Source of the DNA: Weissella ceti
GTDB taxonomy: Bacteria > Bacillota > Bacilli > Lactobacillales > Lactobacillaceae
Direction: 5' to 3'
DNA length: 64,000 nt
Assembly: GCF_018394055.1 (NCBI RefSeq)
Contig: NZ_CP074441.1
Location: 1,178,001-1,242,000 of the forward strand
Part shown: positions 7,319 through 64,000 of the stretch, in pieces
How positions within the stretch are numbered: the first letter of the stretch is position 1
How the letters are laid out: each line of letters begins with the position of its first letter
Position numbers and translations under genes: made by a program
The notes under the pieces: model-generated
Databases searched by the model: none
Seen by the model: only the letters and a program-made list of their open reading frames with translations
What the model was told of the DNA's origin: nothing

Positions 7319-8614
7319 TTACATCTCAAAATGAATCAATGGTGGTACATCAGCCTTATCCGATACACGAATATGATCCGCTAGATAGGCTAGTTCATGA
7401 GAAATATCTTCTCGATTCGCATGCAAAGTTAGAATCGTGTCACCAACTGTAACCTCATCCCCCAACTTCTTATGCATCGTAATCCCAACACCATAATCTA
7501 GGACATCATCCTTAGATGCGCGACCACCACCAAGATACATTGATGCCATTCCCAACGAATCTGCATCCATTTCAGCTAGTACACCAGCTACTTGCGCTGT
7601 GAATGGAATATGAAACTCAGCTTGTGGCATTAAGCTGTAATCATTAATAACTTCTGGATTACCGTCTTGCGCAATAATCATTTGTTTGAATGCCTCTAGC
7701 GCTGTGCCATCTGTCAATGTAGCTTGCAACATGTCACGTGCTTCAGGTTCAGATGTCGCCTTACCAGCCATCATGACCATTGGCGCTCCAAGTGCAAGAC
7801 ATAGTTGGACTAAGTCAGCTGGTCCATTGCCCTTCAAAGTCTCAATGGTCTCTTGAATTTCTAGTGCATTTCCAATTTCACGACCCAAAGGTTGATTCAT
7901 ATCCGAAATAACAGCCTTCATTTGTAGACCTGCTGCTTTACCGATATCAACTAATGACTTGGCTAACGCCTTCGAATCATCAAGCGTCTTCATAAATGCA
8001 CCTGAACCAGTCTTCACATCTAAGACCAAAGCATCATTTCCAGTTGCTAGTTTCTTGGACATGATTGAACTAGAAATCAATGAAATTGAATCTACTGTTG
8101 CGGTTACATCACGTAGTGCATAGATTTTCTTATCAGCGGGTGCAATATCACCAGTCGCAGAAATAATCGCTGTTCCAACAGAACGGATTTGTTCCTTGAA
8201 TTGTTCTTCAGTCAAATTAACATTGAAACCGGGAATCGCTTCTAGCTTATCCAATGTCCCACCAGTGTGACCTAACCCACGGCCAGAAATCATCGGTACT
8301 TTGATATCTAATGCCGCAACCATTGCCGCTAATGGCAAACTCGTCTTATCGCCCACACCACCTGTTGAATGCTTATCAACCTTAATGCCTGGAATGTCTG
8401 ACATATCTAAGACATCCCCAGAACGCATCATCGCATCCGTTAAAGCAGCGCGTTCAGTGACATTCATTTCATTGAAGAACACGGTCATCAAAAATGCACT
8501 CATTTGGTAATCTGAAATTGTCCCATCTGTATATCCATCGACGACAAATTGAATTTCTTCGCCGGATAACGCTTCCCCATTACGCTTCTTCATCAATACA
8601 TCGATCATTTTCAT
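7319..8614 (-). CDS. pdp: Pyrimidine-nucleoside phosphorylase
   Basis: 431 residues from the ATG at 8614, which matches family members starting M-[KR]-M-[IV]-D; a GTG nine bases further up (8623) is possible, and the GGGAG ribosome site lies ambiguously between. The motif KHSTGGVGDKTSLPL (about residues 80-95) is the phosphate-binding signature of the thymidine/pyrimidine phosphorylase family. It cleaves uridine, thymidine and deoxyuridine to base and (deoxy)ribose-1-phosphate in the cytosol. Last gene of the deo operon, 24-33 bp after deoD; its sugar phosphate product feeds DeoB and DeoC encoded upstream. Confidence 0.93.
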   Translation of the reverse strand: MKMIDVLMKKRNGEALSGEEIQFVVDGYTDGTISDYQMSAFLMTVFFNEMNVTERAALTDAMMRSGDVLDMSDIPGIKVDKHSTGGVGDKTSLPLAAMVAALDIKVPMISGRGLGHTGGTLDKLEAIPGFNVNLTEEQFKEQIRSVGTAIISATGDIAPADKKIYALRDVTATVDSISLISSSIMSKKLATGNDALVLDVKTGSGAFMKTLDDSKALAKSLVDIGKAAGLQMKAVISDMNQPLGREIGNALEIQETIETLKGNGPADLVQLCLALGAPMVMMAGKATSEPEARDMLQATLTDGTALEAFKQMIIAQDGNPEVINDYSLMPQAEFHIPFTAQVAGVLAEMDADSLGMASMYLGGGRASKDDVLDYGVGITMHKKLGDEVTVGDTILTLHANREDISHELAYLADHIRVSDKADVPPLIHFEM

Positions 8615-11854: not shown

Positions 11855-13156
11855 ATGAATGATAAAGTTACACAGTTTTTAGAAAAGTATTTACAGCCGG
11901 TCGGGGTTAAACTTGCCGCTAACAAGCCGCTTAACGCTATCCGTGATGGAATCGCACTAAGTATGCCACTTGTTATTGTTGGTTCAATGGCTTTGTTGAT
12001 TGCCAACGGATTCTCAATCGACCCATTTAAGATGTGGTTGATGGACAACGGTATCTTTGATTGGTTGGTAAAGATCGTTAATTCAAGTTTCGGTTTGATT
12101 GGTTTGGTTGCTTCATTTGGAATCGCCTACCGTTACGCTGAATCACACGGTAGTGATGCCCTATCAGCCGGTGTCCTATCTCTTGCAAGTTTCTTCTTAA
12201 TCACCCCAGACTTGATGGGTGGGCCTGAAGGTTTGCAAACTGGAATTGCTTACAGCTTCTTGGGAGCTGGTGGTTTGTTCGCCGCAATTCTAGTGGCCTT
12301 GATCAGTACAGCCATCTTCAATTGGTTCGTTAAGAACAACATTCGAATTAAGATGCCTGACGGTGTGCCACCTGCAGTATCAAATTCATTCGCTGCCTTG
12401 ATTCCTGGCTTCGTAATCCTTGTCTTCTGGGGACTTGTTTACGCCGGAATGGCCGTCACACCATTTGAAAACATTCACCAAGTTCTACAAGTTTTGCTAG
12501 GACAACCATTGAGCGCCTTTGGTGGTTCATTGACTGGTGCGATTGTTGTGACAATTTTGACTTCTCTTCTATGGTTCATTGGTATCCACGGTGGTAACAT
12601 CACTGGTGCTGTTATGAGCCCAATCTGGTTGGCATTGATGGCTGAAAACTTGAGTGCTTACCAAGCTGATCCAAATGCCGTTATGCCACACATCGTGACA
12701 CAACCATTTATGGACTTCTTCGTCTACCTAGGTGGTGGAGGTGCAACCCTTGGACTAGTTTTGGCCATGTGGATTGTTGCTAAGTCTAAGCGTTACAAGA
12801 CCCTTGAAAAGTTGATCACACCTCCTGGTATGTTCAACATTAACGAACCTACAATGTTCGGTGTCCCTGTTGTTTTGAACGTTAGCTTGATTATTCCATT
12901 CGTTATGGTGCCAGTTATTAACGCCATCATCACTTACACAGCGATGGCAACTGGACTTGTCCACGCAACTGTCGGAGTTGTTGTTCCTTGGGTTACACCA
13001 CCAATCATCTCAGGATTCTTGGCTACAGGTTCACACATCTCTGGTGCCCTACTACAAATTGTCTTGATCGTAATCGACGTTGCCCTATACATTCCATTCA
13101 TGCGTAATGTTGACCGCATGGAATACAAGAAGGAATTGGCAACAGTTGAAAACTAA
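11855..13156 (+). CDS. PTS lactose/cellobiose-family EIIC permease
   Basis: 433 residues, about ten membrane segments. The family motifs GIHGGNITGAVMSPIW (middle) and FNINEPTMFGVPVV (C-terminal third) are present, as in CelB/LicC/ChbC; the NEP motif contributes to sugar binding. It imports a disaccharide or glucoside with phosphorylation by the IIB and IIA proteins encoded downstream. GGAGG lies before the ATG. Pairing with MupG suggests a MurNAc- or GlcNAc-containing substrate rather than cellobiose; this is inference. Confidence 0.9.
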   Translation: MNDKVTQFLEKYLQPVGVKLAANKPLNAIRDGIALSMPLVIVGSMALLIANGFSIDPFKMWLMDNGIFDWLVKIVNSSFGLIGLVASFGIAYRYAESHGSDALSAGVLSLASFFLITPDLMGGPEGLQTGIAYSFLGAGGLFAAILVALISTAIFNWFVKNNIRIKMPDGVPPAVSNSFAALIPGFVILVFWGLVYAGMAVTPFENIHQVLQVLLGQPLSAFGGSLTGAIVVTILTSLLWFIGIHGGNITGAVMSPIWLALMAENLSAYQADPNAVMPHIVTQPFMDFFVYLGGGGATLGLVLAMWIVAKSKRYKTLEKLITPPGMFNINEPTMFGVPVVLNVSLIIPFVMVPVINAIITYTAMATGLVHATVGVVVPWVTPPIISGFLATGSHISGALLQIVLIVIDVALYIPFMRNVDRMEYKKELATVEN

Positions 13157-18387: not shown

Positions 18388-19071
18388 TTATTTAGGGACT
18401 ATTAATACACTTTGCTCAACGTTTACGATGTGTAAAGGTACGCCAAATGTATTTGACAACAAGTTCTCATCTAACATAGTCGGAACTATTCCTGACAATA
18501 GGTTCTCCTGATTATTCATCAACCAGATATTGTCCCCTACATTAAAAGCCTGCGTTAAATCATGTAAGACCATCAAGACCGTGAATCGGCGTTGCTTTTG
18601 TAAGGTCGTTAGCGCTTGTAAGAATAATTGTTGGTAACGCAGATCAAGATATGTTGTTGGCTCATCTAATAATAATAGGTCTGGTTTTTGATGTAAGACA
18701 TAACCTAACCAAGCTAATTGGCGTTGTCCACCCGATAGCTGATCCATCTGCTTATCCAGTAAAGCTGTTAACTGTAATAAGTCTACGACTTCTTCATCGA
18801 TATCATTACTTTGAATCGTCAACAATTCACGAACCGTTAACGGTTCGAAGAGTTCATTATGTTGTGCTAACAGCGCAATTCTTTCTGGCACATCTTTAAT
18901 TTCACCAGTAGTTGGTTGAAGCTGTTTTGTAATCAAATTGAATAATGTTGATTTTCCGACACCATTCGGTCCAATTAAACAGGTGATTTCATGATCGATT
19001 AGTTGCGCGCTAACATTATTTAAAATGACTTTGTCACCTACTGAATATGAAAGATGATTTAGTTCTACCAT
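18388..19071 (-). CDS. Heme/iron ABC transporter ATP-binding protein (FecE/FhuC-like)
   Basis: 227 residues from the ATG at 19071. Walker A is GPNGVGKST, the Q-loop AQHNELFEPLTV, the signature LSGGQRQLA, Walker B LLLLDEPTTYLD and the H-loop VLHDLTQA: a complete ABC ATPase of the siderophore/heme class. The start codon abuts the permease stop, with GGGTGG as ribosome site. It powers the permease encoded upstream, and the NEAT proteins point to heme as cargo. Confidence 0.92.
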   Translation of the reverse strand: MVELNHLSYSVGDKVILNNVSAQLIDHEITCLIGPNGVGKSTLFNLITKQLQPTTGEIKDVPERIALLAQHNELFEPLTVRELLTIQSNDIDEEVVDLLQLTALLDKQMDQLSGGQRQLAWLGYVLHQKPDLLLLDEPTTYLDLRYQQLFLQALTTLQKQRRFTVLMVLHDLTQAFNVGDNIWLMNNQENLLSGIVPTMLDENLLSNTFGVPLHIVNVEQSVLIVPK

Positions 19072-19072
19072 A

Positions 19073-20002
19073 CTATTTACCACCCTTCATAAGTAACAGA
19101 ACAAACAACGGTCCACTAATCGCTAACAACACCGCACCAGTTGATAATTCAGTTGGTGCCACAATTGTTCGTGCAATTGTATCAGCGTTCAATAACAATA
19201 GACTGCCGCATAAGCCAGTTGGCATAAACAAGGCTTGTGACTTAGCATGCGGTGCGATAAACCGTGTAATCTGTGGCAATACTGCGCCTAAAAAGAAGAT
19301 AACCCCTAAGAGACTTGTCACCGCTCCAGACCATAGTCCCACAGTCCCTAGAACAAGATATACTGTCTTATGCTCTGATATTTTTAACAGACTTAGCTGT
19401 TCTGATGACAATGCAAAGTATTTCAGATTAGGCCAGACAACAATTAATCCCATTAATCCTATTAATAAGATAACTAGTAGTTGGATAGTCTGGCTTAAAG
19501 TTACCGTACTCAGAGTTGGTAGTGGCACGCCAAAGCCCGTTGTTGTTAATTGCGTCAGCGCTTGGAAGGTCATTGCTGTCGCAATTCCCATCAAAATTAA
19601 TTGCATAGTTGTACGTTGCTTTGGCATAACAATCCGCCAACCAATACTAATAATGACGCCACAGAAACTCGCTACCAAGACATTAATTGTCGTAAGCATG
19701 GGCATTAACACAATCAGACACAACATCAAAAATTGAGCGCCATTCATCATCCCCAAAATAGACGTATCAATTAATCGATTGCGTAATACAAGTTGAATCA
19801 ACACACTACTCCAACCGATCATTGCACCACCTACGACAGCGGTAATAATCCGTGGTAGTCGATAATGGATGATTAATTGCCACGCTTCTGGCTTCGCTTG
19901 AATCAAATTCTGTGGATTTATATACGTACTTCCTAACAAGAAAGCCGCCCCAATACTAAGAATAAGGGCGGCTGTTAGGACGCCGGTATATGCTTTAGGC
20001 AT
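19073..20002 (-). CDS. Heme/iron ABC transporter permease (FecCD family)
   Basis: 309 residues, eight to nine membrane segments. Family motifs are RLPRIITAVVGGAMIGWSSVLIQ near residue 50 (cited in parts: RLPRI, GGAMIG), and near the end GVIFFLGAVLPQITRF with the coupling-helix glycine region, then TIARTI and LSTGAVLLAISGPLFVLLL. It is a half-transporter that dimerises and passes heme or iron complexes from the binding protein into the cytosol. It sits 14 bp after the binding-protein gene. Confidence 0.9.
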   Translation of the reverse strand: MPKAYTGVLTAALILSIGAAFLLGSTYINPQNLIQAKPEAWQLIIHYRLPRIITAVVGGAMIGWSSVLIQLVLRNRLIDTSILGMMNGAQFLMLCLIVLMPMLTTINVLVASFCGVIISIGWRIVMPKQRTTMQLILMGIATAMTFQALTQLTTTGFGVPLPTLSTVTLSQTIQLLVILLIGLMGLIVVWPNLKYFALSSEQLSLLKISEHKTVYLVLGTVGLWSGAVTSLLGVIFFLGAVLPQITRFIAPHAKSQALFMPTGLCGSLLLLNADTIARTIVAPTELSTGAVLLAISGPLFVLLLMKGGK

Positions 20003-20016
20003 AACTGGTCTCCTTT

Positions 20017-20910
20017 TTATTTAGACTTTACTTCCGCAAGCCAATCTTGAATTTGCTTAAATGCTTGTGGTGCATTCAAATTAGCAGTCATGCCAAAAAT
20101 TGGTTCTTTAGCTTGATAAACATGCTTATTTTTTACAGCGCGCATTTGTTGCCAATTAGCGGATTGCAATGTTTCTTTGAAACTTGCAAAGACACTATCT
20201 TCCATCGCATGAGCCATGGTAATAATCACGTCGGGTTGTTCATGAACAAGTTGTTCCATATTTGGTTGGACATAGTCACTCTTTGCATCACTAGTGGTCA
20301 TAATTTCACCACCGGCACGTTCGACTAAATCCCCAACATAACTATACTTCGTTCCAGCTAAGAATGATCCACCTGGCATACCCATCAAAAGTAACACTTT
20401 GGGATGCTTAGTCATTTTTCGGTCTTTTAAATCTAACGTTCTGTTTAATTTAACCGCTTCTTGTTCTTTACCAAAAGTATCACCTAACTTAGTGATACTA
20501 TCTTGTAAATTAGCGACTGTTTTAAAATTAAGTACTTCAACTTTAATACCATCACTAGTTAATCGCTTCTTGTAATCATCAATCAGTGCTGCATCCACGT
20601 AGACGGCATCTGGCTTTAGCGACCCAATTTTTTCCATGTTGGGTGACACATGATTGCCTACTTGCGGTAACTCAGCATAACGAGTTGGTACTTGTTTATT
20701 CGTACCCGGCGTAGCAACACCTACAACTTGCTCAATTCCTAATTGATCAAACACTTCACTCTGTGCATTAGTTGTTGTTACTACCCGCTTAAATGCTTGA
20801 TCTGAATTACCAGGCGTCATTTGAGCAAACGCCAACCATAACCAGCCCCCAGCCAATAAGACAAGTACAAGTACACATCCGGCCATCAATCGTAATTGTG
20901 TTTTTGTCAT
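20017..20910 (-). CDS. Heme/iron ABC transporter substrate-binding protein (IsdE-like), membrane-anchored
   Basis: 297 residues. After a hydrophobic segment (about 7-30) comes a class III binding fold: RVVTTTNAQSEVFDQLGIEQVVGVATPG, then MEKIGSLKPDAVYVDA, and a C-terminal AVKNKHVYQAKEPI region (motifs cited in short pieces). The only early Cys, C12 in LMAGC, precedes most of the hydrophobic stretch, so a lipoprotein is unlikely; the protein probably stays tethered by an uncleaved helix. It should hand heme from surface NEAT proteins to the permease. It starts 1 bp after the upstream NEAT gene stop. Confidence 0.85.
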   Translation of the reverse strand: MTKTQLRLMAGCVLVLVLLAGGWLWLAFAQMTPGNSDQAFKRVVTTTNAQSEVFDQLGIEQVVGVATPGTNKQVPTRYAELPQVGNHVSPNMEKIGSLKPDAVYVDAALIDDYKKRLTSDGIKVEVLNFKTVANLQDSITKLGDTFGKEQEAVKLNRTLDLKDRKMTKHPKVLLLMGMPGGSFLAGTKYSYVGDLVERAGGEIMTTSDAKSDYVQPNMEQLVHEQPDVIITMAHAMEDSVFASFKETLQSANWQQMRAVKNKHVYQAKEPIFGMTANLNAPQAFKQIQDWLAEVKSK

Positions 20911-20911
20911 A

Positions 20912-21757
20912 TTATTTCTTTCTTGATGTAAACCAAATCACAGCACCTGCCGCTAAAATACCGACTGCTAAACCACTACCAATAAAGATAAGAATTTTAT
21001 TCGTTACGTCTGACTTCTTAGCTGCATGATTCTGCTTACTACGTTCCGTCATTCTAGATTCCTTTGCCTGACTGTCTGCAGACTTCTTGTTTGTGCTATA
21101 TCCAAACGCAGATTCTTTTTTAGCAGGTTCATGCTCGCTTGATGCTTTCTTTGTTTCGACGTCTGATAATTCAGACATAGCTTTTGTCTTCTCTGTAGAT
21201 GACATATCTGCTCGCTTGGATGTCGTAATTTCTTGTTTCTTGGCTTGCTTGTCAGCTTGCGAAGCTACTTCTCGTGTAGTCATTTTTTTCGTAGACTTCA
21301 TCTGGGTAGGTTCTTTAATAGAGCTAGCATCAATTTGTAGCCCAACATTGTAAACATGATGATAATTGATGCTATCCACATCAACCTTAATGACCGCATT
21401 CTGTCGTGCACTTAAATTATTCGTTTGAAACGAGTAAGTGATAGTTTGCGTCTGACCGTTAGCTGACTTCGACGTATTAGCTGCCCCACCATTAATACTC
21501 ATAATCTGGACTGGGTAATTTCCCAATGATTTATTTGTTGTTACGCTTGAAGTAATAGTATATTGGCCATTACCCAGCGGCGTGACACTGGCAACATTTG
21601 AAAAATATGATGCCGCGTAAGACGTTTGGTTTGTTCCCTCTTTCAACACAGATAGCGGAACTGTCTGTGTGTTCGCACTAGTGATCGGCACCCCCACAAA
21701 CAATGCACTGATTGCCAGGAACAGTGTAATTAAAATATTTTTCTTGATGTTCATCAT
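20912..21757 (-). CDS. NEAT-domain heme-binding surface protein
   Basis: 281 residues: signal peptide (1-29), one NEAT domain (about 33-145), a charged Lys/Ser/Glu-rich stalk (150-250) and a C-terminal membrane helix followed by SRKK. The NEAT heme motif YxxxY is intact as YHHVY (132-136), with the helix SYAASYF at 46-52. Such proteins relay heme across the wall (IsdC/Shp role). There is no LPxTG; anchoring is by the membrane helix. It lies 1 bp after the large NEAT gene and 1 bp before the binding protein. Confidence 0.88.
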   Translation of the reverse strand: MMNIKKNILITLFLAISALFVGVPITSANTQTVPLSVLKEGTNQTSYAASYFSNVASVTPLGNGQYTITSSVTTNKSLGNYPVQIMSINGGAANTSKSANGQTQTITYSFQTNNLSARQNAVIKVDVDSINYHHVYNVGLQIDASSIKEPTQMKSTKKMTTREVASQADKQAKKQEITTSKRADMSSTEKTKAMSELSDVETKKASSEHEPAKKESAFGYSTNKKSADSQAKESRMTERSKQNHAAKKSDVTNKILIFIGSGLAVGILAAGAVIWFTSRKK

Positions 21758-21758
21758 T

Positions 21759-24700
21759 TTATCCTTTAAACATTAGCCAAGCTAATGTAACTGAAATAAA
21801 TCCTAGCAGTGCTGCAATAACACTTCCTAGCAACAAGAACGCATTATTGATATCAGCTTGTTCTTCCGCTGAATTGGTCATTGCTGCATCGTTAGATTGC
21901 GCCGCATCAATTAATTGTTCCATTGTGTTCTTGGCTGGTTCTTTGGTGTCTGATGCCTTAGCTACATCTGTTGAATCCATATCGTCATCAAGGTTAGCAT
22001 CCACCTTAGTTGTAGGAACAAAATGCATTGGCAAAACAGTATCCGTTTGGTTTGTCGTTGTTGCATTATTCAATGGCTTCACTACCTCGATTGGTGTCGT
22101 TGCATCGGCTGATTCAACAGTATTCTTGTTCACTCGTAATTCACGTGACTTAGTTACACCCTTATTATTCGTGTGTACTTGTCCATCTTGTGTTGGTACT
22201 TGCGGAGCAACTTCTTCATGTACTGCATCTTCTGTTTTAGGTGTTCCCTTAAAGCCAGCAATTAGGCGTAATGAGAATGGTTGTGATTCCTTAATAACGC
22301 CCGGTACATCAACGTCCACGTGTCCAACAATTGTCGTTGTCAAAACTGACTTTGGCAAAGTTACTGTGAAACTGTTACCAGAACGGACGGCCTTTTGACC
22401 GCCAATCATCAAACGCGTAATCATATTCGCCGCTGCTTCATTGTTGGCGAAAATAGTGATTGTCGCTTGGTTCCCCTTAATTTCAACATGCGCTGCGTTT
22501 AGCATGTATTGCGCCATCACTGAAGTTTGATCCGTACCTAACTTCAAGAACTTCGCTACATAATTGTGGTATTTATTTGGTGTCACGTTGTTTTTGTTTG
22601 GTGTGCCAGACTTATCTTCTGAATCAGACTTATTCGGCTTAGTCTTATCCGGTTGCTTGTCTTGTTCTGATTCTTTTTCAGGTTTGTTCTTTTGCTCATC
22701 AACTTGTTTATCAGCATCGTCATGTTCAACTGGCTTATCAGGTACAATACCCTTTTGAACCGTACGTCCATCTAAGCGAAGCGTGAACGGTTGTTCTTCC
22801 TTAAATTGTCCAAGGCCTGGGATAAATGTTGAGACACTTACAAAACCGTCCAATGTAATCGTTACATCGTTTTGTAGCTTCTTAGTTCCCAAATCGAAAT
22901 AGAACTTAGTTCCTTCGCGCTTTACGTAGCTTTTTCCATTCAACATCAAGTTTTGAATCATCGCTGCTGCTTTATCATTATTAGCACTGACCACCAAATA
23001 TTGATGTCCATTTTGATAGTACATTTGTGCACTCTTCAGCATGTATTGTGCCATCACGGAAGCATCAGACGTTCCTAGCTTCAAGTAATGTGCTTTATAA
23101 GTTACAAGATCTTGTTCCTTAGATGGTTTTGTATCTTGCTGTGGTTCTTTATCTTTATTCACATCTTGTGGCTTCTCAGGAACATTCGGTGTTTCTGGTG
23201 TTTCTGGTGTTTCTGGTGTTTGCTTTTCTGGCTCTTGCTTTTCTGGCTCGGTACTTTCAGTGTTTTTATTCTTATCAGGTACACTATCTTTTTGAACCGT
23301 ACGTCCATCTAAGCGAAGTGTGAATGGTTGTTCTTCCTTAAATTGTCCAAGGCCTGGGATAAACGTTGAGACACTTACAAACCCGTTTAATGTAATCGTT
23401 ACATCGTTTTGTAGCTTCTTAGTTCCCAAATCGAAATAGAACTTAGTTCCTTCGCGCTTTACGTAGCCTTTTCCATTCAACATCAAGTTTTGAATCATCG
23501 CTCCTGCTTTATCATCATTTGCACTGATTAATACGTATTGATGTCCATTTTGATAGTACATTTGTGCGCTCTGCAACATATATTGCGCCATTACAGATGT
23601 ATCATTTGTCCCTAACTTTAAGTAATGAGCCTTATACGTCACAACATCTTGTTCCTTAGATGGATTAACATCGTTATGTGATTCTGTATCCTTATTCACA
23701 TCTTGTGGCTTATCAGGAACATTCGGTGTTTCTGGTGTTTGCTTTTCTGGTGTTTGCTTTTCTGGTTCTTGCTTTTCTGGTTCTTGCTTTTCTGGTGTCT
23801 TATTCTCTTGAACAGTACGTTCATCTAACTGTAACGTAAATGGTTGTTCTTCTTTGAATTGACCAAGACCAGGAATATACGCTGAGACACTTACAAATCC
23901 GTTCAATGTAATCGTTACATCGTTTTGTAACTTCTTAGTTCCCAAATCAAAATAGAACTTAGTACTTTCACGCTTCACGTATGATTTTTCATTCATCAAC
24001 ATGTTTTGAATCATCGCTGCGGCTTTGTCATCATTTGCACTAATGACTAAGTATTGATGTCCATTTTGATAGTACATTTGTGCGCTCTTCAACATATATT
24101 GCGCCATTACAGATGTATCATTTGTCCCCACCTTTAAATAATGGGCCTTATATGTCACAACATCTTGTTCTTTAGATGGTGTGACATCATTGTTAGATTC
24201 TGTGTCCTTATTCACATCCTCTGGCTTATCTTCAGTCTCAGGCTTAGTAGCTTCTTCATCCGGATTAGGCTTCACTTCAGGTTCTGCAGGTTGTTCTGCA
24301 TCCTTGTCGGCATCATTTGTTAACCCATAAAGCTTGAAGAAAACATCATAATGATGATCATAATTCAGCACTTCAGGATTAATCTTAACGTGCATATTTT
24401 CCTTAAATGGCGTGCCATTAAGAGCATCCTCAGTTAACGCAAAGCGATATTCAAGTACGTATGTTTCTCCAACTAACTTGGTTGAAACCTTAGTTCCGTG
24501 CAAGAAAGTGATACTATCTGCACCATAAGTCTTTGGAACAATGACTTTAATCAACAATGTCTTTTGTCCGTCAGCCTGGGTTTCTACCACTGCATTCGTT
24601 TGAATAAAGTTACTTGCAACTGACGTTAGGTTGCTGCCATCACCCTTTAAGACAGAAATCTTAACGGCTTGATTTTCGTCAGTCTTGTCTGCACCCTTTA

Positions 24701-26072
24701 GTTGAACAGGTTGCGTCAATGTCCCAGTAAATTTAATCGCCTTATCTTCCGCATCGGTCTCCCAAGACATGTAAACTTCATTATCTTTATTCACATCAAT
24801 ATCAGTTAGTAACAGTCCCTCATCGTTCACTGTTAGTTGACCATCAGATTGTAGTTTTATTGGTAATACATTTGCGTTACGAGACTTCACTAATACCGGA
24901 ATTAATCCTGATGCCTTCTTATCATTAATCATCGCTACCGGCAGCGTTACTGCTTGGAACTTCGCATTTACACGTGTGATTTTAGTCAAATCTTTCAACG
25001 CGCTCAAATCGTAAATATGATTACGCATCATGTTGATTGTTTCCAATCCACTTAATTCTTTCAAGACAGAAATATCAGATACGTTATTATTTGAAAAACC
25101 AAGATACTTTAGATTTTTTAATTCAGCCAACGGCGTCAAAGATGACACATTATCTTTGCTAAAATCTAAATCACTTAATTTCGTTAGCTTACTTAAGCTG
25201 CTTAAATCTGAAATTTGATCATTAAAGTCAATTGCCAAAATTTCTAAGTCCTTCATACCTGCGAAGATTGACATTTCATTATTTGATAATCCCATTTGTG
25301 AGAAATTAGCTTTTTTCAATTTCGTCAAACTCTTCAAGGAACTCACATCGGCAGAACGATTATTTCCAAGCGCAATACGCTCTAGATTGGTTAGATGTGA
25401 CACAGGCTCAAAATTAGTAATTTGATTTGAATTAATTTCTAATTCTGTCAATTCCGTCATACTTGCCAATGCACTCACATCAGTTAATTGATTACCACCC
25501 ATCCCCAATGAACGTAATTTTGTTAACTTACTTAGATCAGGTACGACACTCAATTTAGTATTTTGCATTTCTAGTGTTACCAAATTGGTTAAATCACTAA
25601 CCGCTGATAACTTGTCCGGTTCTAGCCCATAGGCATTAGCCACTAAATTCAATTGTGCAACAGATGTAGTCTTTAACGGCGCCAAGTCAGGTAGGACTTT
25701 AGATTTATTGAAGCGTAGGCTCACAGATTCTAAATGATGTAACTGTCCTAAAGGTTCAATACTAGCAATGGCATTCCCAGACAAATCAATTAATTTTAGA
25801 TTTTTGGCATATTCTAAACCAGTTAAATCAGTGATATCAGAATACGTTAGATTTAGACTTGTGACTTTCAACAAGTTTTCCTTCGTTAATGGAACGCCCG
25901 TCCCCAAAGCACGTTGTAATTCCTTTTGTAAATTCTCATCTGGAATCACGACAACGTTATCTTCTGTTAAATTAGTTTCATCCGCATGAATAATGTTCAC
26001 ATCCATGAACTCACCCGCGCTCAAACCGATCAGTAATGTACTCATCAGTGTCATGACAATATGCTTTTTCAT
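21759..26072 (-). CDS. Large surface protein with leucine-rich repeats and five NEAT-type domains (hemophore/adhesin)
   Basis: 1437 residues. Signal peptide 1-30; internalin-like leucine-rich repeats about 65-375 (22-residue units with L-x-x-L-x-L-x-x-N); a linker domain 380-455; NEAT1 about 466-585 with an intact YDHHY at 571-575; then NEAT-like copies at about 640-752, 812-923, 990-1102 and 1168-1272. The first three copies are nearly identical. All four keep the helix SVMAQYM but lack YxxxY. Linkers are rich in Pro/Glu/Lys (EPEKQ, TPETP). A C-terminal membrane helix (1408-1434) replaces a sortase signal. LRR+NEAT recalls IlsA of Bacillus cereus. Probable role: capture heme or hemoproteins at the surface and feed the operon's transporter. 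Confidence 0.88.
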   Translation of the reverse strand: MKKHIVMTLMSTLLIGLSAGEFMDVNIIHADETNLTEDNVVVIPDENLQKELQRALGTGVPLTKENLLKVTSLNLTYSDITDLTGLEYAKNLKLIDLSGNAIASIEPLGQLHHLESVSLRFNKSKVLPDLAPLKTTSVAQLNLVANAYGLEPDKLSAVSDLTNLVTLEMQNTKLSVVPDLSKLTKLRSLGMGGNQLTDVSALASMTELTELEINSNQITNFEPVSHLTNLERIALGNNRSADVSSLKSLTKLKKANFSQMGLSNNEMSIFAGMKDLEILAIDFNDQISDLSSLSKLTKLSDLDFSKDNVSSLTPLAELKNLKYLGFSNNNVSDISVLKELSGLETINMMRNHIYDLSALKDLTKITRVNAKFQAVTLPVAMINDKKASGLIPVLVKSRNANVLPIKLQSDGQLTVNDEGLLLTDIDVNKDNEVYMSWETDAEDKAIKFTGTLTQPVQLKGADKTDENQAVKISVLKGDGSNLTSVASNFIQTNAVVETQADGQKTLLIKVIVPKTYGADSITFLHGTKVSTKLVGETYVLEYRFALTEDALNGTPFKENMHVKINPEVLNYDHHYDVFFKLYGLTNDADKDAEQPAEPEVKPNPDEEATKPETEDKPEDVNKDTESNNDVTPSKEQDVVTYKAHYLKVGTNDTSVMAQYMLKSAQMYYQNGHQYLVISANDDKAAAMIQNMLMNEKSYVKRESTKFYFDLGTKKLQNDVTITLNGFVSVSAYIPGLGQFKEEQPFTLQLDERTVQENKTPEKQEPEKQEPEKQTPEKQTPETPNVPDKPQDVNKDTESHNDVNPSKEQDVVTYKAHYLKLGTNDTSVMAQYMLQSAQMYYQNGHQYVLISANDDKAGAMIQNLMLNGKGYVKREGTKFYFDLGTKKLQNDVTITLNGFVSVSTFIPGLGQFKEEQPFTLRLDGRTVQKDSVPDKNKNTESTEPEKQEPEKQTPETPETPETPNVPEKPQDVNKDKEPQQDTKPSKEQDLVTYKAHYLKLGTSDASVMAQYMLKSAQMYYQNGHQYLVVSANNDKAAAMIQNLMLNGKSYVKREGTKFYFDLGTKKLQNDVTITLDGFVSVSTFIPGLGQFKEEQPFTLRLDGRTVQKGIVPDKPVEHDDADKQVDEQKNKPEKESEQDKQPDKTKPNKSDSEDKSGTPNKNNVTPNKYHNYVAKFLKLGTDQTSVMAQYMLNAAHVEIKGNQATITIFANNEAAANMITRLMIGGQKAVRSGNSFTVTLPKSVLTTTIVGHVDVDVPGVIKESQPFSLRLIAGFKGTPKTEDAVHEEVAPQVPTQDGQVHTNNKGVTKSRELRVNKNTVESADATTPIEVVKPLNNATTTNQTDTVLPMHFVPTTKVDANLDDDMDSTDVAKASDTKEPAKNTMEQLIDAAQSNDAAMTNSAEEQADINNAFLLLGSVIAALLGFISVTLAWLMFKG
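22767..24155 (-). repeat. Three near-identical ~340-bp repeats encoding NEAT-like domains
   Basis: Copies at 23817-24155, 23304-23639 and 22767-23105 share long identical stretches in both DNA and protein, separated by variable Pro-Glu-Lys linkers made of short reiterated codons. A fourth, diverged copy is at 22257-22571. Confidence 0.9.
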
Positions 26073-59472: not shown

Positions 59473-59508
59473 TATTCATTTGTTAGGATGAAGTTATGGA
59501 GGTGTTTT

Positions 59509-59997
59509 ATGCAAAATTGGCAACATGATCAAGCATATCGTGAGATCGTCGACGGACTGCTTGCAGAACCGTCGGTACAACACCTAAGTGATTATATTCA
59601 ACATCACCATACCGACCGTCTAACTCATTCAATTAGCGTTTCTTATAGAAGTTATCGGATTGCTAAACGCCTACACTTAAATGCAACGGCTGTTGCGCGT
59701 GCAGGTATCTTACATGACCTCTTCTATTATGATTGGCGTGAAACTAAGTTCGAATCTGGAAATCATGCGTATATTCATCCCCGTATTGCGTTACGTAATG
59801 CGGAACGATTAACACCACTCTCTCCAATGGAACGAGATATTATTCTTAAACATATGTGGGGTGTGACTGCCGCGTTACCAAAGTATCGTGAAAGTCTGTT
59901 GGTTGATATCGTTGATGATTATGTCGCGGTTACTGAATTCTTTATTCCAACAAAACGTCGTGTTAAAAACATATTGTCTCATGTAAAAAACCATTAA
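59509..59997 (+). CDS. HD-domain phosphohydrolase-like protein
   Basis: 162 residues from the ATG at 59509 (GGAGGTG 6 bp upstream; an ATG at 59488 overlaps that site). HD fold: H40 in RLTHSISVSYRS, H69-D70 in GILHDLFYYD, then a later D in VDIVDDYVAVTE. Likely a cytosolic metal-dependent phosphohydrolase; the substrate (nucleotide or other) is unknown. Common neighbour of the trmH gene in lactobacilli. Confidence 0.88.
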   Translation: MQNWQHDQAYREIVDGLLAEPSVQHLSDYIQHHHTDRLTHSISVSYRSYRIAKRLHLNATAVARAGILHDLFYYDWRETKFESGNHAYIHPRIALRNAERLTPLSPMERDIILKHMWGVTAALPKYRESLLVDIVDDYVAVTEFFIPTKRRVKNILSHVKNH

Positions 59998-60019
59998 ACA
60001 TTTGTTTAATGGTTTTTTT
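59985..60019. terminator. Bidirectional terminator between HD gene and defence-like operon
   Basis: Stem CCATTAAACA/TGTTTAATGG flanked by A6 and T7; it overlaps the HD gene stop and sits 10 bp from the end of the helicase gene. Confidence 0.9.
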
Positions 60020-60028
60020 GTGCCTTAA

Positions 60029-61606
60029 TTATGAATCTCTATTACCGAAAATACAGTTTGCAAAAACTTCCACAACATCAGGATTATTTACAACTGCAAT
60101 GGCGATTTTCTCTTTTGCTCTACTTAAATTTACATATAGCCCTTCAATCGGATGATAATGATTTTGAACTTCATTAATATGGTGTAACTTGTATTTTCCT
60201 GATCCTCTTGTACCTGGTTCAGGTTCAATCCATTTATACTCATATCTCTCATCAATCATGATAGCTACTTTAGAGACGTCCTCGCCAATGACATCCGTCG
60301 TAACTAGAGATGTCGAACGTTCTTTTTCCTTCTGCCATTCAGGTACCTGTTCCAATACCGAATATCCATTTTCAGAACAAGTTGATAGCCATTGATTTGC
60401 ATCATTCTTGTTTGTAAAATATCGAAACATTACGTCATTCGCAATAGTTTGATGAGTAACTCCTTTTTTATATGAATATGATAAATCTAAGAATTTGTTT
60501 ACAAACGCGTTGATATTTTCATTTGATCTAACATTATCTGTCAAACTTAATTCATTTGCCCTTCCAGCTAATAAGCTTTTAACCCCACCACCAAAATCCT
60601 TTTTACTTAAGGATTGTTTAACATCATAAAAAACCACTGTTTTCTGTACTTCATTATTACTGGCTAGACGGATTGCTTTATCAAGTTGAGGTCTAACATT
60701 ATCAAATGATCGTTGGGCTTCATCAATAAGAATCACATCGAAATCTTCTAAAGACAGCTGTGCAAATTCTTTTGCCCCTACAATAGTAAGATTCGGTATT
60801 TTTTTCTCTAAGTCAAAATGCCCCTGACGTTTTCTTCCAGTAAACGAATAGAGTTTTCTAGCCCTGGGGAGTTTTAATATAATATCAAAAGCTACCATGG
60901 TTTTCCCAGATCCTCCCGCCCCTTCGATTGAAAACGCGTTACTGATCAAATTTGCATTCATAACTTTTTTAACAACATTATTCTGATCTTCCGTTAACCA
61001 ATACTCGTGGTTTAAAAATTTGTCAGTATTCGTTACCGGAGAGATAATAAAATCAGATGGATTAATGTTTAGAATTTCATTATTTAACGCAGTAGTTCCC
61101 AACGATTGAAAAATTTTACACACTTCATTTATTGAAATTTCCTCTAAATTTTTTTCAGTTTTAGAATACTTCCAATACTTAATGCCATATTCACTCACAT
61201 ACATCGCAACATGACATAAATATCTACCTTTCTGCATCGTACATAATAGTCTTTCTTGTCTTTGAAATTTTTCTAACACAGATATTTTGATCTCCTCTTC
61301 AGGTTTAATACCAATAGTATTATCTTTAAAATCAAAATTTAGTATTTTCTTTTCATTATTAAAGAACATGTCAAATTCATCATTAATAGGTGCCGGAGGC
61401 TTTATTCCAAAATAAAAACTGGTTTCAGAATCGTTAAATCCATGTGACACTAGTTCCCTTATTAATTCGCTTAAATTTTTTAGTTCTTGCTCTTTTAATA
61501 TGAACGAGTGTGACTTAAGTGCATTCTTTAATACATCTAATTTTTCTGGTGATGCATTGAACGTGTTTTTTAAATCATTAAACGCTATTGGTTGTCCTAA
61601 GCTCAC
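60029..61606 (-). CDS. SF1 helicase/ATPase, DUF2075-like, third gene of a candidate defence operon
   Basis: 525 residues. N-terminal ~200 residues are AT-rich in code and not recognised, possibly nuclease-like or regulatory. The ATPase half has Walker A GAGGSGKT (229-236), SFTGRKRQ (motif Ia-like), Walker B ILIDEAQRS with DEAQ at 295-298, VVFYDVKQSLS (motif III), and motif VI VNLSRAKEKIAIA (about 492-504), as in DUF2075/UvrD-like ATPases of prophage and defence islands. It starts 13 bp after the second gene. It is not a Gabija component in known systems. Confidence 0.85.
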   Translation of the reverse strand: MSLGQPIAFNDLKNTFNASPEKLDVLKNALKSHSFILKEQELKNLSELIRELVSHGFNDSETSFYFGIKPPAPINDEFDMFFNNEKKILNFDFKDNTIGIKPEEEIKISVLEKFQRQERLLCTMQKGRYLCHVAMYVSEYGIKYWKYSKTEKNLEEISINEVCKIFQSLGTTALNNEILNINPSDFIISPVTNTDKFLNHEYWLTEDQNNVVKKVMNANLISNAFSIEGAGGSGKTMVAFDIILKLPRARKLYSFTGRKRQGHFDLEKKIPNLTIVGAKEFAQLSLEDFDVILIDEAQRSFDNVRPQLDKAIRLASNNEVQKTVVFYDVKQSLSKKDFGGGVKSLLAGRANELSLTDNVRSNENINAFVNKFLDLSYSYKKGVTHQTIANDVMFRYFTNKNDANQWLSTCSENGYSVLEQVPEWQKEKERSTSLVTTDVIGEDVSKVAIMIDERYEYKWIEPEPGTRGSGKYKLHHINEVQNHYHPIEGLYVNLSRAKEKIAIAVVNNPDVVEVFANCIFGNRDS

Positions 61607-61619
61607 AGCTTTCTCCTTT

Positions 61620-62744
61620 TTAAAAATCTAGTGCTAACTGTTTTGCTGGTCTCTCCCAATCATCAGATATAAAAAATTTCCAACAATCTGGTGAAATCAA
61701 ATATACATCGCTTTTTGAACGAGTCAGCGCAACATACAATTTATTTCTAGTAGAAATCGATAATTCCTTACTGGCATCTACCAATAATTTATCATATGTT
61801 GTTGGGGTTAAAATAATTGCAACATTTTCAAATGTACTCCCTTTGGAAATCGTCCAATTGTACGTTTTATTTCTGTACTTTTCGGGTACAATTGTTTTTC
61901 TATCAAATATCAAAATACTCTCTACTTTTTCAAGAACATCGTCTGCAAAGTCATCTATGAAATGTACATAACCACTATTTTTTTTATTTGACGTAATGTT
62001 TATTCCTAATTTTTCTTTTACAAATTCAGCAACATTTTCTGTAATTCTTTTGCTGTCTAAAAATAACTCGCCATCAACTTGAATATTAAAGGGTTCAGTT
62101 TCAAACTGTTTTTTGATGAAAAAGACATCACTTGAATAATCATTTTTATAGGGGGTTACTGTTGTCGATGTCGTTGTCACCAATGATTGATATACATCTC
62201 CGACATAAACAATGTCCATTTTACTTTTTTGGATAAGTTCCCTCAAAAATGAAAAGTCATAATTTGTAAAGTCTTGAAATTCATCAACAATAATTACATC
62301 AAAATATTTTCTTAGACGTTGTAACCCTTTTTCAAATACGAACTTATTGTCTAGTATTAATCTGCTTACTCGGTTCCCGTATATTTGTCCATTACTATTT
62401 GTCCAAAAATCGATATTTTGCTTCTTCGCAAATCTTTTTTCACCAATTTCTTGTTCACTTACCCAACTTATTCCATTTGATAAATTAATATTCTCAGTAA
62501 AACAACTATTAATGTCATTAATATAGGGTCTAATAAAATTGTTTATCAGCATCGAGTGATATGTTTGAATATAAACATTCTCACTCTTGTGTGATGAATC
62601 CTGAACAAGAAAGGTAATATTCTTTATATTTTCATTTGTAAATGTTGTATATAAAATTCGCTTTCCAATAAATTCATTAGATTGTGTAACGTATCTCGTT
62701 TTTCCAGCACCAGCTTTTGCTAATATTATTTTTTTAGTTGTCAT
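61620..62744 (-). CDS. Compact UvrD-like SF1 helicase (GajB-like), second gene of a candidate defence operon
   Basis: 374 residues. Walker A AKAGAGKT (9-16), TTFTNENI (Ia), VYIQTYHSM (Ib, as in GajB-type proteins), Walker B DVIIVDEFQD with DEFQD at 154-158, VGDVYQS (III, 182-187), ISKGSTFENVAIILTP (V) and LYVALTRSKSDVYLI (VI). It is shorter than GajB (about 490-500 residues) and seems to lack most 1B/2B insertions. Its start overlaps the end of the OLD-family gene by 11 bp. Probable partner ATPase or DNA-end sensor for that nuclease. Confidence 0.88.
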   Translation of the reverse strand: MTTKKIILAKAGAGKTRYVTQSNEFIGKRILYTTFTNENIKNITFLVQDSSHKSENVYIQTYHSMLINNFIRPYINDINSCFTENINLSNGISWVSEQEIGEKRFAKKQNIDFWTNSNGQIYGNRVSRLILDNKFVFEKGLQRLRKYFDVIIVDEFQDFTNYDFSFLRELIQKSKMDIVYVGDVYQSLVTTTSTTVTPYKNDYSSDVFFIKKQFETEPFNIQVDGELFLDSKRITENVAEFVKEKLGINITSNKKNSGYVHFIDDFADDVLEKVESILIFDRKTIVPEKYRNKTYNWTISKGSTFENVAIILTPTTYDKLLVDASKELSISTRNKLYVALTRSKSDVYLISPDCWKFFISDDWERPAKQLALDF

Positions 62745-64000
62745 TCAATAACCAACTTAGTCCATTTTCAATATAACTAGGCATAACCAATGATCCATCT
62801 GTAAATCTATCCACCATATCTAATGCTATTATCGTCTTATTATCTAGCATGTAATTCAATTCACTGTTTACAGTTCTAGTACTAAAAGGCGTCTTTTCAA
62901 TTCTTTGTTTATTCCGCTCATATACGGCAGCTTCAAAAGTCCATTCAGTCTCCAAATCTTCACCTAGAAAAATCCTTACATCTTCATTTTTTTCATTGTT
63001 ATTCTTCGCCTGTTGTAATCGCTTCTCGTCTCGATCGTTATCTGTAAAAATAACTACCCGAGCATTTGTTATTCTTGCTAATTCATAAAAGGCATCGTAA
63101 TATCTCCCTTTATACGAAATCACTTCTACAGAATCAGCTAAAGCTGGATTAGCAATCTTTAATAAGGTTTCCATCACAATATATTCAGCCGTTCCCTCAA
63201 CTAACACAATATATTTTGCACTCAACAAATTCAGAAAATTCAAATTATCTAAGCGTTCAAAAAAACTTGTTGTTTTTTGAGTCAATTTAGAGAATGTTTG
63301 AATAGTTGGCTTATTATTTTTGATCCACAAAACGTTTTTAATCCCCATCCTGCTTATAATTTGAGGATTATGCGTGGTAACAATTAATTGTGATTCATTT
63401 ATATTTTTTTTGATATTTGTAATTTGTTGTTTAGTATTATTTGTAGATAAATGATTTTCTGGTTCTTCAATCAAAATCAATCGCGTATCTTCTGACTCTA
63501 ACGCGAGTTTCGTTTTTATAAGATTTTCTTGTCCACTACCTAAATGCCTTATAGATACTTGATTATTTACATTTATCACATCTAAAATTGACTCTAGACT
63601 GGTTGTATTTGGATTGATTTTTAATTCGTACTCCTCAATATTTTCAGAGTGTATTTGAGAAATTGATTGTCTGTACGAAGATTGCATTTTTTGTTTTTTT
63701 GAGTCAGTTAATCCATTGAATAATTGTTTTGCGAATATATTGAATGGATCGCCTATCCAATTACTGTTATCAATAGTTATTGTTTTTAATGGGTCTTGTC
63801 TCATTAAATATGCAACACCTGAAAATGTTCTCCAGGTTGCTTGATACAAGTCAAACGGTAACGTAAACACACCTAAATCCGATTGATTTAACGTCCATTC
63901 CATATATTGTTCTTTGAAATCTTCATTGAATTTATATTCAAAAATCACACCACTCGATCCCAGATTCCAATTTTTCATGGATTGTGGATAATTTTCTCCA
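62734..64000 (-). CDS. OLD-family ATPase/TOPRIM nuclease (GajA-like), partial: 5' end outside window
   Basis: The frame stays open past the first visible ATG (63978) to the window edge, so the Walker A part is missing here. Present, counted from that ATG: ABC signature-like LGSGQEN (146-152), Walker B LILIEEPENHLS (167-178), H-loop TTHN (201-204), then a TOPRIM domain with E261 in IVLVEGTAEY and FTDNDRDEKR (D313, D315, D317). This is the layout of OLD/GajA nicking endonucleases. Paired with a UvrD-like gene it recalls Gabija. Very AT-rich, A/T-ending codons compared with the housekeeping genes nearby. Confidence 0.88.
   Translation of the reverse strand, partial: GENYPQSMKNWNLGSSGVIFEYKFNEDFKEQYMEWTLNQSDLGVFTLPFDLYQATWRTFSGVAYLMRQDPLKTITIDNSNWIGDPFNIFAKQLFNGLTDSKKQKMQSSYRQSISQIHSENIEEYELKINPNTTSLESILDVINVNNQVSIRHLGSGQENLIKTKLALESEDTRLILIEEPENHLSTNNTKQQITNIKKNINESQLIVTTHNPQIISRMGIKNVLWIKNNKPTIQTFSKLTQKTTSFFERLDNLNFLNLLSAKYIVLVEGTAEYIVMETLLKIANPALADSVEVISYKGRYYDAFYELARITNARVVIFTDNDRDEKRLQQAKNNNEKNEDVRIFLGEDLETEWTFEAAVYERNKQRIEKTPFSTRTVNSELNYMLDNKTIIALDMVDRFTDGSLVMPSYIENGLSWLLNDN

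What the first reader, a model, noticed from the sequence alone, without database searches (positions are those of the whole stretch)
60029..64000. Candidate three-gene anti-phage system: OLD/TOPRIM protein + compact UvrD-like helicase + DUF2075-like helicase
Seen: three overlapping or closely spaced minus-strand genes, AT-richer than the housekeeping genes around them, with OLD ATPase/TOPRIM motifs, UvrD motifs and a second SF1 ATPase. Known: Gabija is GajA (OLD ATPase+TOPRIM) plus GajB (UvrD-like, ~500 aa). Differences: the UvrD partner is only 374 aa, and a third ATPase of 525 aa with an unrecognised 200-residue N-terminus is tightly coupled. Inference: a Gabija variant with an extra sensor/effector helicase, or a distinct system.
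Basis: partly seen in the sequence, partly recalled or inferred. Interest (0 to 1): 0.78.

Follow-up and report, generated by a model that had tools for sequence, protein, structure and literature searches.

The report
Compact Gabija beside an AbiO/Nhi gene
A small block of three genes in a lactic acid bacterium looks like two already known virus-defence systems, Gabija and AbiO/Nhi, sitting one after the other, rather than a new three-part system.

Summary
In detail: three tandem minus-strand genes, 31% GC against 43% in the flanks. Extending upstream completes the 531-aa OLD/TOPRIM protein with its ATPase half. Genes 1 and 2 are Gabija by PADLOC: GajA 1.5e-74, GajB 3.9e-41. The short GajB is a widespread compact form already held there as 365- and 369-residue models; the missing ~112 residues equal the 2B subdomain in size. 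Gene 3 is AbiO/Nhi (7.2e-85), a named single-gene nuclease-helicase; its N-terminus shows an invariant E...D...(D/E)xK pattern, suggesting a PD-(D/E)XK nuclease. The trio was not found elsewhere: of 80 compact GajB loci, 80 have GajA adjacent and 0 have AbiO/Nhi (71 with at least 1.7 kb downstream), though one has a different Schlafen-type helicase 1.2 kb downstream. Of 35 other AbiO/Nhi loci, 2 have Gabija within 5 kb, in reversed order. A sister species shows the site without the cassette (109 bp against 4,464 bp). Most likely two independent defence systems acquired together, perhaps on one transcript. Functional coupling is not excluded but lacks comparative support.

The parts
62734..64000 (-). 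gajA (OLD ATPase + TOPRIM nuclease), 531 aa; continues past the window end to window-equivalent 64329 (L002:10734-12329)
   Evidence: PADLOC GajA PDLC00102 1.5e-74 over 3-525; ATPase and TOPRIM residues conserved in 74 aligned sequences, own plus 73
61620..62744 (-). gajB, compact form, 374 aa, SF1 (UvrD-like), probably without a 2B subdomain
   Evidence: PADLOC GajB PDLC00148 3.9e-41 and PDLC00140 1.2e-32; AlphaFold model pLDDT 80.5; structure matches to PcrA and to chains of the Gabija complex
60029..61606 (-). AbiO/Nhi-family nuclease-helicase, 525 aa; N-terminal domain with PD-(D/E)XK-like residues E41, D79, D92, K94; C-terminal Schlafen group 3 SF1 helicase
   Evidence: PADLOC AbiO 7.2e-85 and Nhi 4.4e-83; Pfam PF09848 6.6e-13; invariant residues in 19 aligned sequences; AlphaFold model pLDDT 78.1
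61607..61619 (-). 13-bp gap between gajB and the AbiO/Nhi gene with a ribosome-binding-site-like AGGAG
   Evidence: sequence read
59985..60018 (-). 15-pair AT-rich hairpin after the AbiO/Nhi gene, a likely end of the transcript
   Evidence: -15.8 kcal/mol, z -6.8 against 200 shuffles; the consensus scan did not list it
59488..59997 (+). flanking HD-domain gene; left border of the cassette; 109 bp from tRNA-Lys in the sister species

Best explanation
Two independent, already named anti-phage systems sit together between an HD-domain gene and tRNA-Lys: a compact-type Gabija (GajA + GajB) and, 13 bp downstream on the same strand, a single-gene AbiO/Nhi nuclease-helicase; the spacing suggests one transcript. 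Inferred working: GajA assembles into the core complex and cuts or nicks DNA with its TOPRIM site, gated by nucleotide binding at its ATPase; compact GajB docks on it and supplies a second ATPase that senses or licenses the target. The AbiO/Nhi protein acts on its own: an SF1 motor carrying a PD-(D/E)XK-like nuclease that attacks replicating phage DNA, for Nhi reported to depend on the phage single-stranded DNA-binding protein. Shown here: gene identities by profile, motif integrity, no other trio in the samples searched, a site without the cassette in a sister species. From papers on relatives: complex formation and triggers. Inferred: that these copies work, are co-transcribed and act independently.
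For: PADLOC matches for all three. Compact GajB plus GajA is a stand-alone pair: 80 of 80 GajB loci have GajA adjacent, 0 of 80 have AbiO/Nhi at E < 1e-20 (by blast also 0). 0 of 7 further family loci and 0 of 8 further class loci. AbiO/Nhi is mostly without Gabija: of 35 other loci with flanks (12 family, 11 viral, 12 class) 2 have a Gabija pair (L193, L263), about 2.9 and 4.4 kb downstream of AbiO/Nhi, the reverse order to the window. GajA keeps its ATPase and TOPRIM residues. Low GC, and a sister species without the cassette. One likely hairpin terminator after the third gene and an RBS but almost no room for a promoter between genes 2 and 3.
Against: The 13-bp spacing is tighter than mere neighbourhood needs and would also fit a coupled operon. 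L085 has a 646-aa Schlafen-group-3 helicase (PF09848 3e-84; PADLOC PDC-S41 4.6e-14, Nhi 6.7e-14 over the helicase half only) about 1.2 kb downstream of compact GajB, so a helicase of the same superfamily can stand there. All homologues found are distant (nearest GajA 45%, GajB 41-45%, AbiO/Nhi about 30% identity), so closer relatives that keep the trio may lie outside the sampled collections. No activity or transcript was measured.
Confidence: 0.85

Rival explanations
1. A lineage-specific three-gene Gabija variant in which AbiO/Nhi serves as an extra sensor or effector for the GajAB complex.
For: One strand, 11-bp overlap and 13-bp gap, RBS, one terminator-like hairpin. A Gabija pair near AbiO/Nhi recurs at two other places, and another Schlafen-group-3 helicase lies 1.2 kb behind a compact GajB in L085.
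Against: AbiO/Nhi was not found at any of the other compact GajB loci whose flanks were examined. In the two other neighbourhoods the order differs and the genes are kilobases apart, one with a different, long-form Gabija.
Confidence: 0.1
2. The OLD + SF1 pair is some other OLD-type system (class-2 OLD with a helicase, retron-like or Septu-like effector) and not Gabija.
For: OLD-type ATPases are shared by many defence systems; the sequence search of solved structures gave an ABC-F protein, retron/PtuA ATPases and SMC proteins, not GajA.
Against: Among PADLOC models GajA and GajB are the best for both genes; gene order and overlap match; TOPRIM is present; I saw no reverse transcriptase or HNH partner among the neighbouring ORFs.
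Confidence: 0.04
3. A decayed, non-functional defence remnant.
For: Relatives in the same family are broken: AbiO/Nhi split in G060 and G132, GajA interrupted in G267.
Against: All three frames here are intact and full length and the examined catalytic residues are kept.
Confidence: 0.05

Closest known systems
Gabija (GajA-GajB), compact branch (PADLOC models PDLC00102/PDLC00098 for GajA and PDLC00148/PDLC00140 for GajB)
   Same: Near whole-length profile matches, gene order, overlapping junction, OLD ATPase and TOPRIM residues, SF1 motifs
   Different: The structurally studied Bacillus cereus GajB is 494 aa with a 2B subdomain (PMC10822852, passages); this one is 374 aa and appears to lack it
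AbiO / Nhi single-gene nuclease-helicase (PADLOC PDLC02350 and PDLC02372)
   Same: Near whole-length match of the third gene; Schlafen group 3 helicase C-terminus; N-terminal nuclease-like residues
   Different: Lies 13 bp behind a Gabija pair; only 23-29% identical to the nine family members aligned; the models do not decide between AbiO and Nhi

Membership tests
Gabija | gajA and gajB adjacent in one orientation, in that order | tested here: met
   11-bp overlap
Gabija | GajA with a complete ABC-type ATPase (P-loop, signature, Walker B, H-loop) | tested here: met
   G32, N34, G37, K38, G264, G266, E288, E289, H320 identical in 74 of 74 aligned GajA (own plus the 73 of 80 loci with a near full-length match); P-loop supplied by the upstream extension
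Gabija | class 2 TOPRIM active site (B. cereus GajA E379, E383, D432, D434, D511, D513, K541; passages of PMC10822852 and PMC10781630) | tested here: met
   E378, E382, D430, D432, K498, each in 74 of 74; T464 and E466 (74 of 74) stand where D511/D513 would be, as T506/E508 in the B. pseudomallei OLD named in PMC10822852. The equivalences are by motif; no B. cereus sequence was aligned
Gabija | GajB is an SF1/UvrD-like protein with DExQD-type Walker B | tested here: met
   DEFQD 154-158 and other motifs; Pfam UvrD-helicase 2e-12; Foldseek rank 2 is chain F of Gabija complex 8tk1, taken to be GajB
Gabija | GajB with 1A, 1B, 2A and 2B subdomains | tested here: inconclusive
   Motif II stands at 154 here and D162/E163 in B. 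cereus GajB, so the 1A/1B half is alike in length; after it 220 residues here against 332 there, a loss of 112 where 2B measures 111 (306-416, PMC10822852 passages). The compact form is in PADLOC as GajB, so 2B does not define the family there
Gabija | 4:4 GajA-GajB complex and phage defence | not testable with these tools
   needs expression and phage challenge
AbiO/Nhi | near whole-length match to the family models | tested here: met
   AbiO 7.2e-85 over 12-514 of 525; Nhi 4.4e-83 over 16-515
AbiO/Nhi | SF1 helicase motor | tested here: met
   PF09848 6.6e-13; G232, G234, D295, E296 invariant in 10 of 10 members of A2; Foldseek top hit human SLFN11
AbiO/Nhi | nuclease domain | tested here: inconclusive
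   E41, D79, K94 invariant in 19 of 19 and alpha-beta-beta-beta-alpha-beta order in the model; no convincing Pfam or PDB match for the N-terminus alone; the original Nhi paper was not found under the DOI tried
AbiO/Nhi | acts as a single gene, with dependence on phage SSB | not testable with these tools
   reported for Nhi in passages of PMC12904381 and PMC10732053

The most novel reading that the evidence does not exclude
A three-gene defence operon in which the AbiO/Nhi nuclease-helicase is functionally wired to a 2B-less Gabija, the pair of motors covering DNA ends (Gabija) and SSB-coated replication intermediates (AbiO/Nhi) of the same phage, expressed and inherited as one unit.
Probability: 0.1. 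Interest if true: 0.5.

Novelty: new member of a known kind. Interest (0 to 1): 0.22.

Why it matters
As found, it is a clean example of two known systems sharing one short defence cassette. Of more general use: the compact GajB form, found in several phyla and apparently without the 2B subdomain, tests whether the UvrD-type 2B lid matters in Gabija at all, which fits the report that B. cereus GajB showed no helicase activity (PMC10681800, passages). The AbiO/Nhi N-terminus also gains a testable active site (E41, D79, D92, K94).

Tried and rejected
Viral-contig scan with the window's GajB: no relative. Plasmid searches: 1,737 records for GajB and 61 for AbiO/Nhi, all under 60% identity; their neighbourhoods were not checked. 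Sequence search of solved structures: no GajA or GajB hit by sequence, none for AbiO/Nhi; the AbiO/Nhi N-terminal profile gave only ribosomal P0 at E 1.1 and 1.4.

Weak AbiO/Nhi-profile matches beside compact GajB, checked before being dropped: L073, L088 and L269 are UvrD helicases, L269 with a NERD domain; L085 is a Schlafen-group-3 helicase that matches Nhi only over its helicase half. A partial GajA-profile match about 7 kb from AbiO/Nhi in L266 fits NsnB (2e-6) better than GajA (1.1e-4) and is cut by the edge, so it is not counted as Gabija.

A tRNA attachment-type repeat was looked for: no shared stretch of 9 or more bases on the same strand between 12441-12540 and 7401-12400 of L002, and nothing longer than 8 between the borders 7901-8100 and 12301-12560. 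I saw no integrase among the cassette's ORFs of 80 aa or more. Promoter scan not informative: 33 sites against 24.7 (sd 5.5) in shuffles; a 10-of-12 match lies upstream of gajA at L002 12413-12386.

Genome co-occurrence: in the family sample of 397 genomes, 12 strong AbiO/Nhi and 9 compact GajB genomes besides the own one, none with both; in the class sample of 398, 12 and 10 besides the own one, one with both (G789), about 76 kb apart. Chance would give about 0.3 in each, so these counts have little power. Dropped before counting as other helicases, by score and frame length: 9 weaker AbiO/Nhi genomes, 14, and the weak rows. Wider flanks were fetched for 7 of 9 family GajB genomes (the other two, G348 and G370, only in the short loci, without AbiO/Nhi) and 8 of 11 class GajB places.

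Paper searches: 'AbiO-Nhi' + Gabija none (64); AbiO + Gabija + defense 7 (67); Nhi + Gabija + phage + nuclease 10 (68); Weissella + Gabija 2 (92). In the listings and passages that I saw, no paper describes a Gabija-AbiO/Nhi operon; most of these papers were seen as listings only.
Full report
What is there. The window ends inside a minus-strand cassette of three genes. Taking the next bases of the same contig completes the first: a 531-aa OLD-type ATPase/TOPRIM protein, then a 374-aa SF1 protein (11-bp overlap), then a 525-aa protein 13 bp further on with AGGAG ahead of a GTG start. The cassette has 31% GC against 43% on both sides. An AT-rich hairpin, far more stable than shuffles, follows the third gene. 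Beyond gajA lies tRNA-Lys.

How it got there. In the sister species G055 the same HD gene and tRNA-Lys are 109 bp apart, with the prfB-like gene of this genome next; here the gap is 4,464 bp. The HD gene was found in 28 of 28 genus genomes, own included. Within the 1.5 kb held, tRNA-Lys appears behind it in G055 and, 1.0-1.1 kb away, in three more (L153, L157, L158), where one gene of about 250 aa lies between (by my reading a glycerophosphodiester phosphodiesterase). So G055 is one informative site without the cassette; I cannot say from one case whether it was never filled. No repeat or integrase that I found marks the means of entry.

Gene 3 is AbiO/Nhi. PADLOC AbiO 7.2e-85 and Nhi 4.4e-83, both nearly end to end. 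The C-terminal part is a Schlafen group 3 helicase and the model's best structural matches are human Schlafens. In the N-terminal 200 residues, E41, D79 and K94 are invariant in 19 of 19, with D or E two residues before K94 in the alignments read; with the strand order of the model this looks like a PD-(D/E)XK nuclease. No domain library confirms it, so it stays an inference.

Do the three belong together? A genome-contig scan gave 80 compact GajB loci, the best of 235. 80 of 80 have GajA adjacent and 0 of 80 have AbiO/Nhi at E < 1e-20; 71 have at least 1.7 kb of downstream sequence, 44 at least 5 kb on both sides. Three of the 80 carry weak matches to the AbiO/Nhi profile: two are UvrD helicases and one (L085) is another Schlafen-group-3 helicase 1.2 kb downstream of gajB, related to AbiO/Nhi in its helicase half only.

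In reverse, of 35 other AbiO/Nhi loci (12 family, 11 viral, 12 class; some cut by contig ends) two have a Gabija pair: L193 on a viral contig (compact form, about 2.9 kb downstream with ORFs between) and L263 (long-form GajA 1e-239 and GajB 6.9e-179, about 4.4 kb downstream, GajB cut by the edge of the stretch). In both, AbiO/Nhi precedes gajA, the reverse of the window. This is what defence islands look like, not a fixed operon.

Mechanism. For Gabija: a GajA core with docked GajB, both ATPases needed, DNA cutting by TOPRIM (PMC10822852, PMC10781630, passages); and a report that Gabija acts on DNA lacking RecBCD activity (PMC12904381, passages). [quoted passage not shown] I apply these to the window's genes by homology only. 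A survey of lactic acid bacteria reports Gabija as a gajA-gajB cluster in about 9.3% of strains, frequently next to restriction-modification genes (PMC13304284, abstract and passages).

Verdict. The sequence observation is right; the proposed new three-gene system is not supported. Two known systems share a small, probably acquired cassette. The most novel reading left is a lineage-specific coupling of the two, at about 10%.

Noticed in passing
window 18388-26072 (-): A probable haem/iron uptake cluster: ABC transporter genes (my reading), a periplasmic-binding-type protein, a 281-aa NEAT protein and a 1,437-aa protein with leucine-rich repeats, a NEAT domain and several similar repeats.
   Followed up: partly
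L110:688-3270: One open frame of about 860 aa matches both GajA and GajB profiles: a possible natural GajA-GajB fusion in a Bacteroidales metagenome assembly.
   Followed up: no
L172 (G060), L176 (G132), L189; L164 (G267): AbiO/Nhi split into two or three frames in three loci and GajA interrupted in one, suggesting frequent decay of these defence genes.
   Followed up: no
L263 and L274 (G789): One genome carries a compact Gabija, a long-form Gabija and AbiO/Nhi, the last two about 4.4 kb apart.
   Followed up: partly
L085:10333-12270: A 646-aa Schlafen-group-3 helicase (PF09848 3e-84) about 1.2 kb downstream of a compact Gabija.
   Followed up: partly
L193:7844-10203: Between AbiO/Nhi and a compact Gabija on a viral contig lie ORFs of 258, 101 and 291 aa; the first and last have no PADLOC match, the middle one was not scanned.
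   Followed up: no
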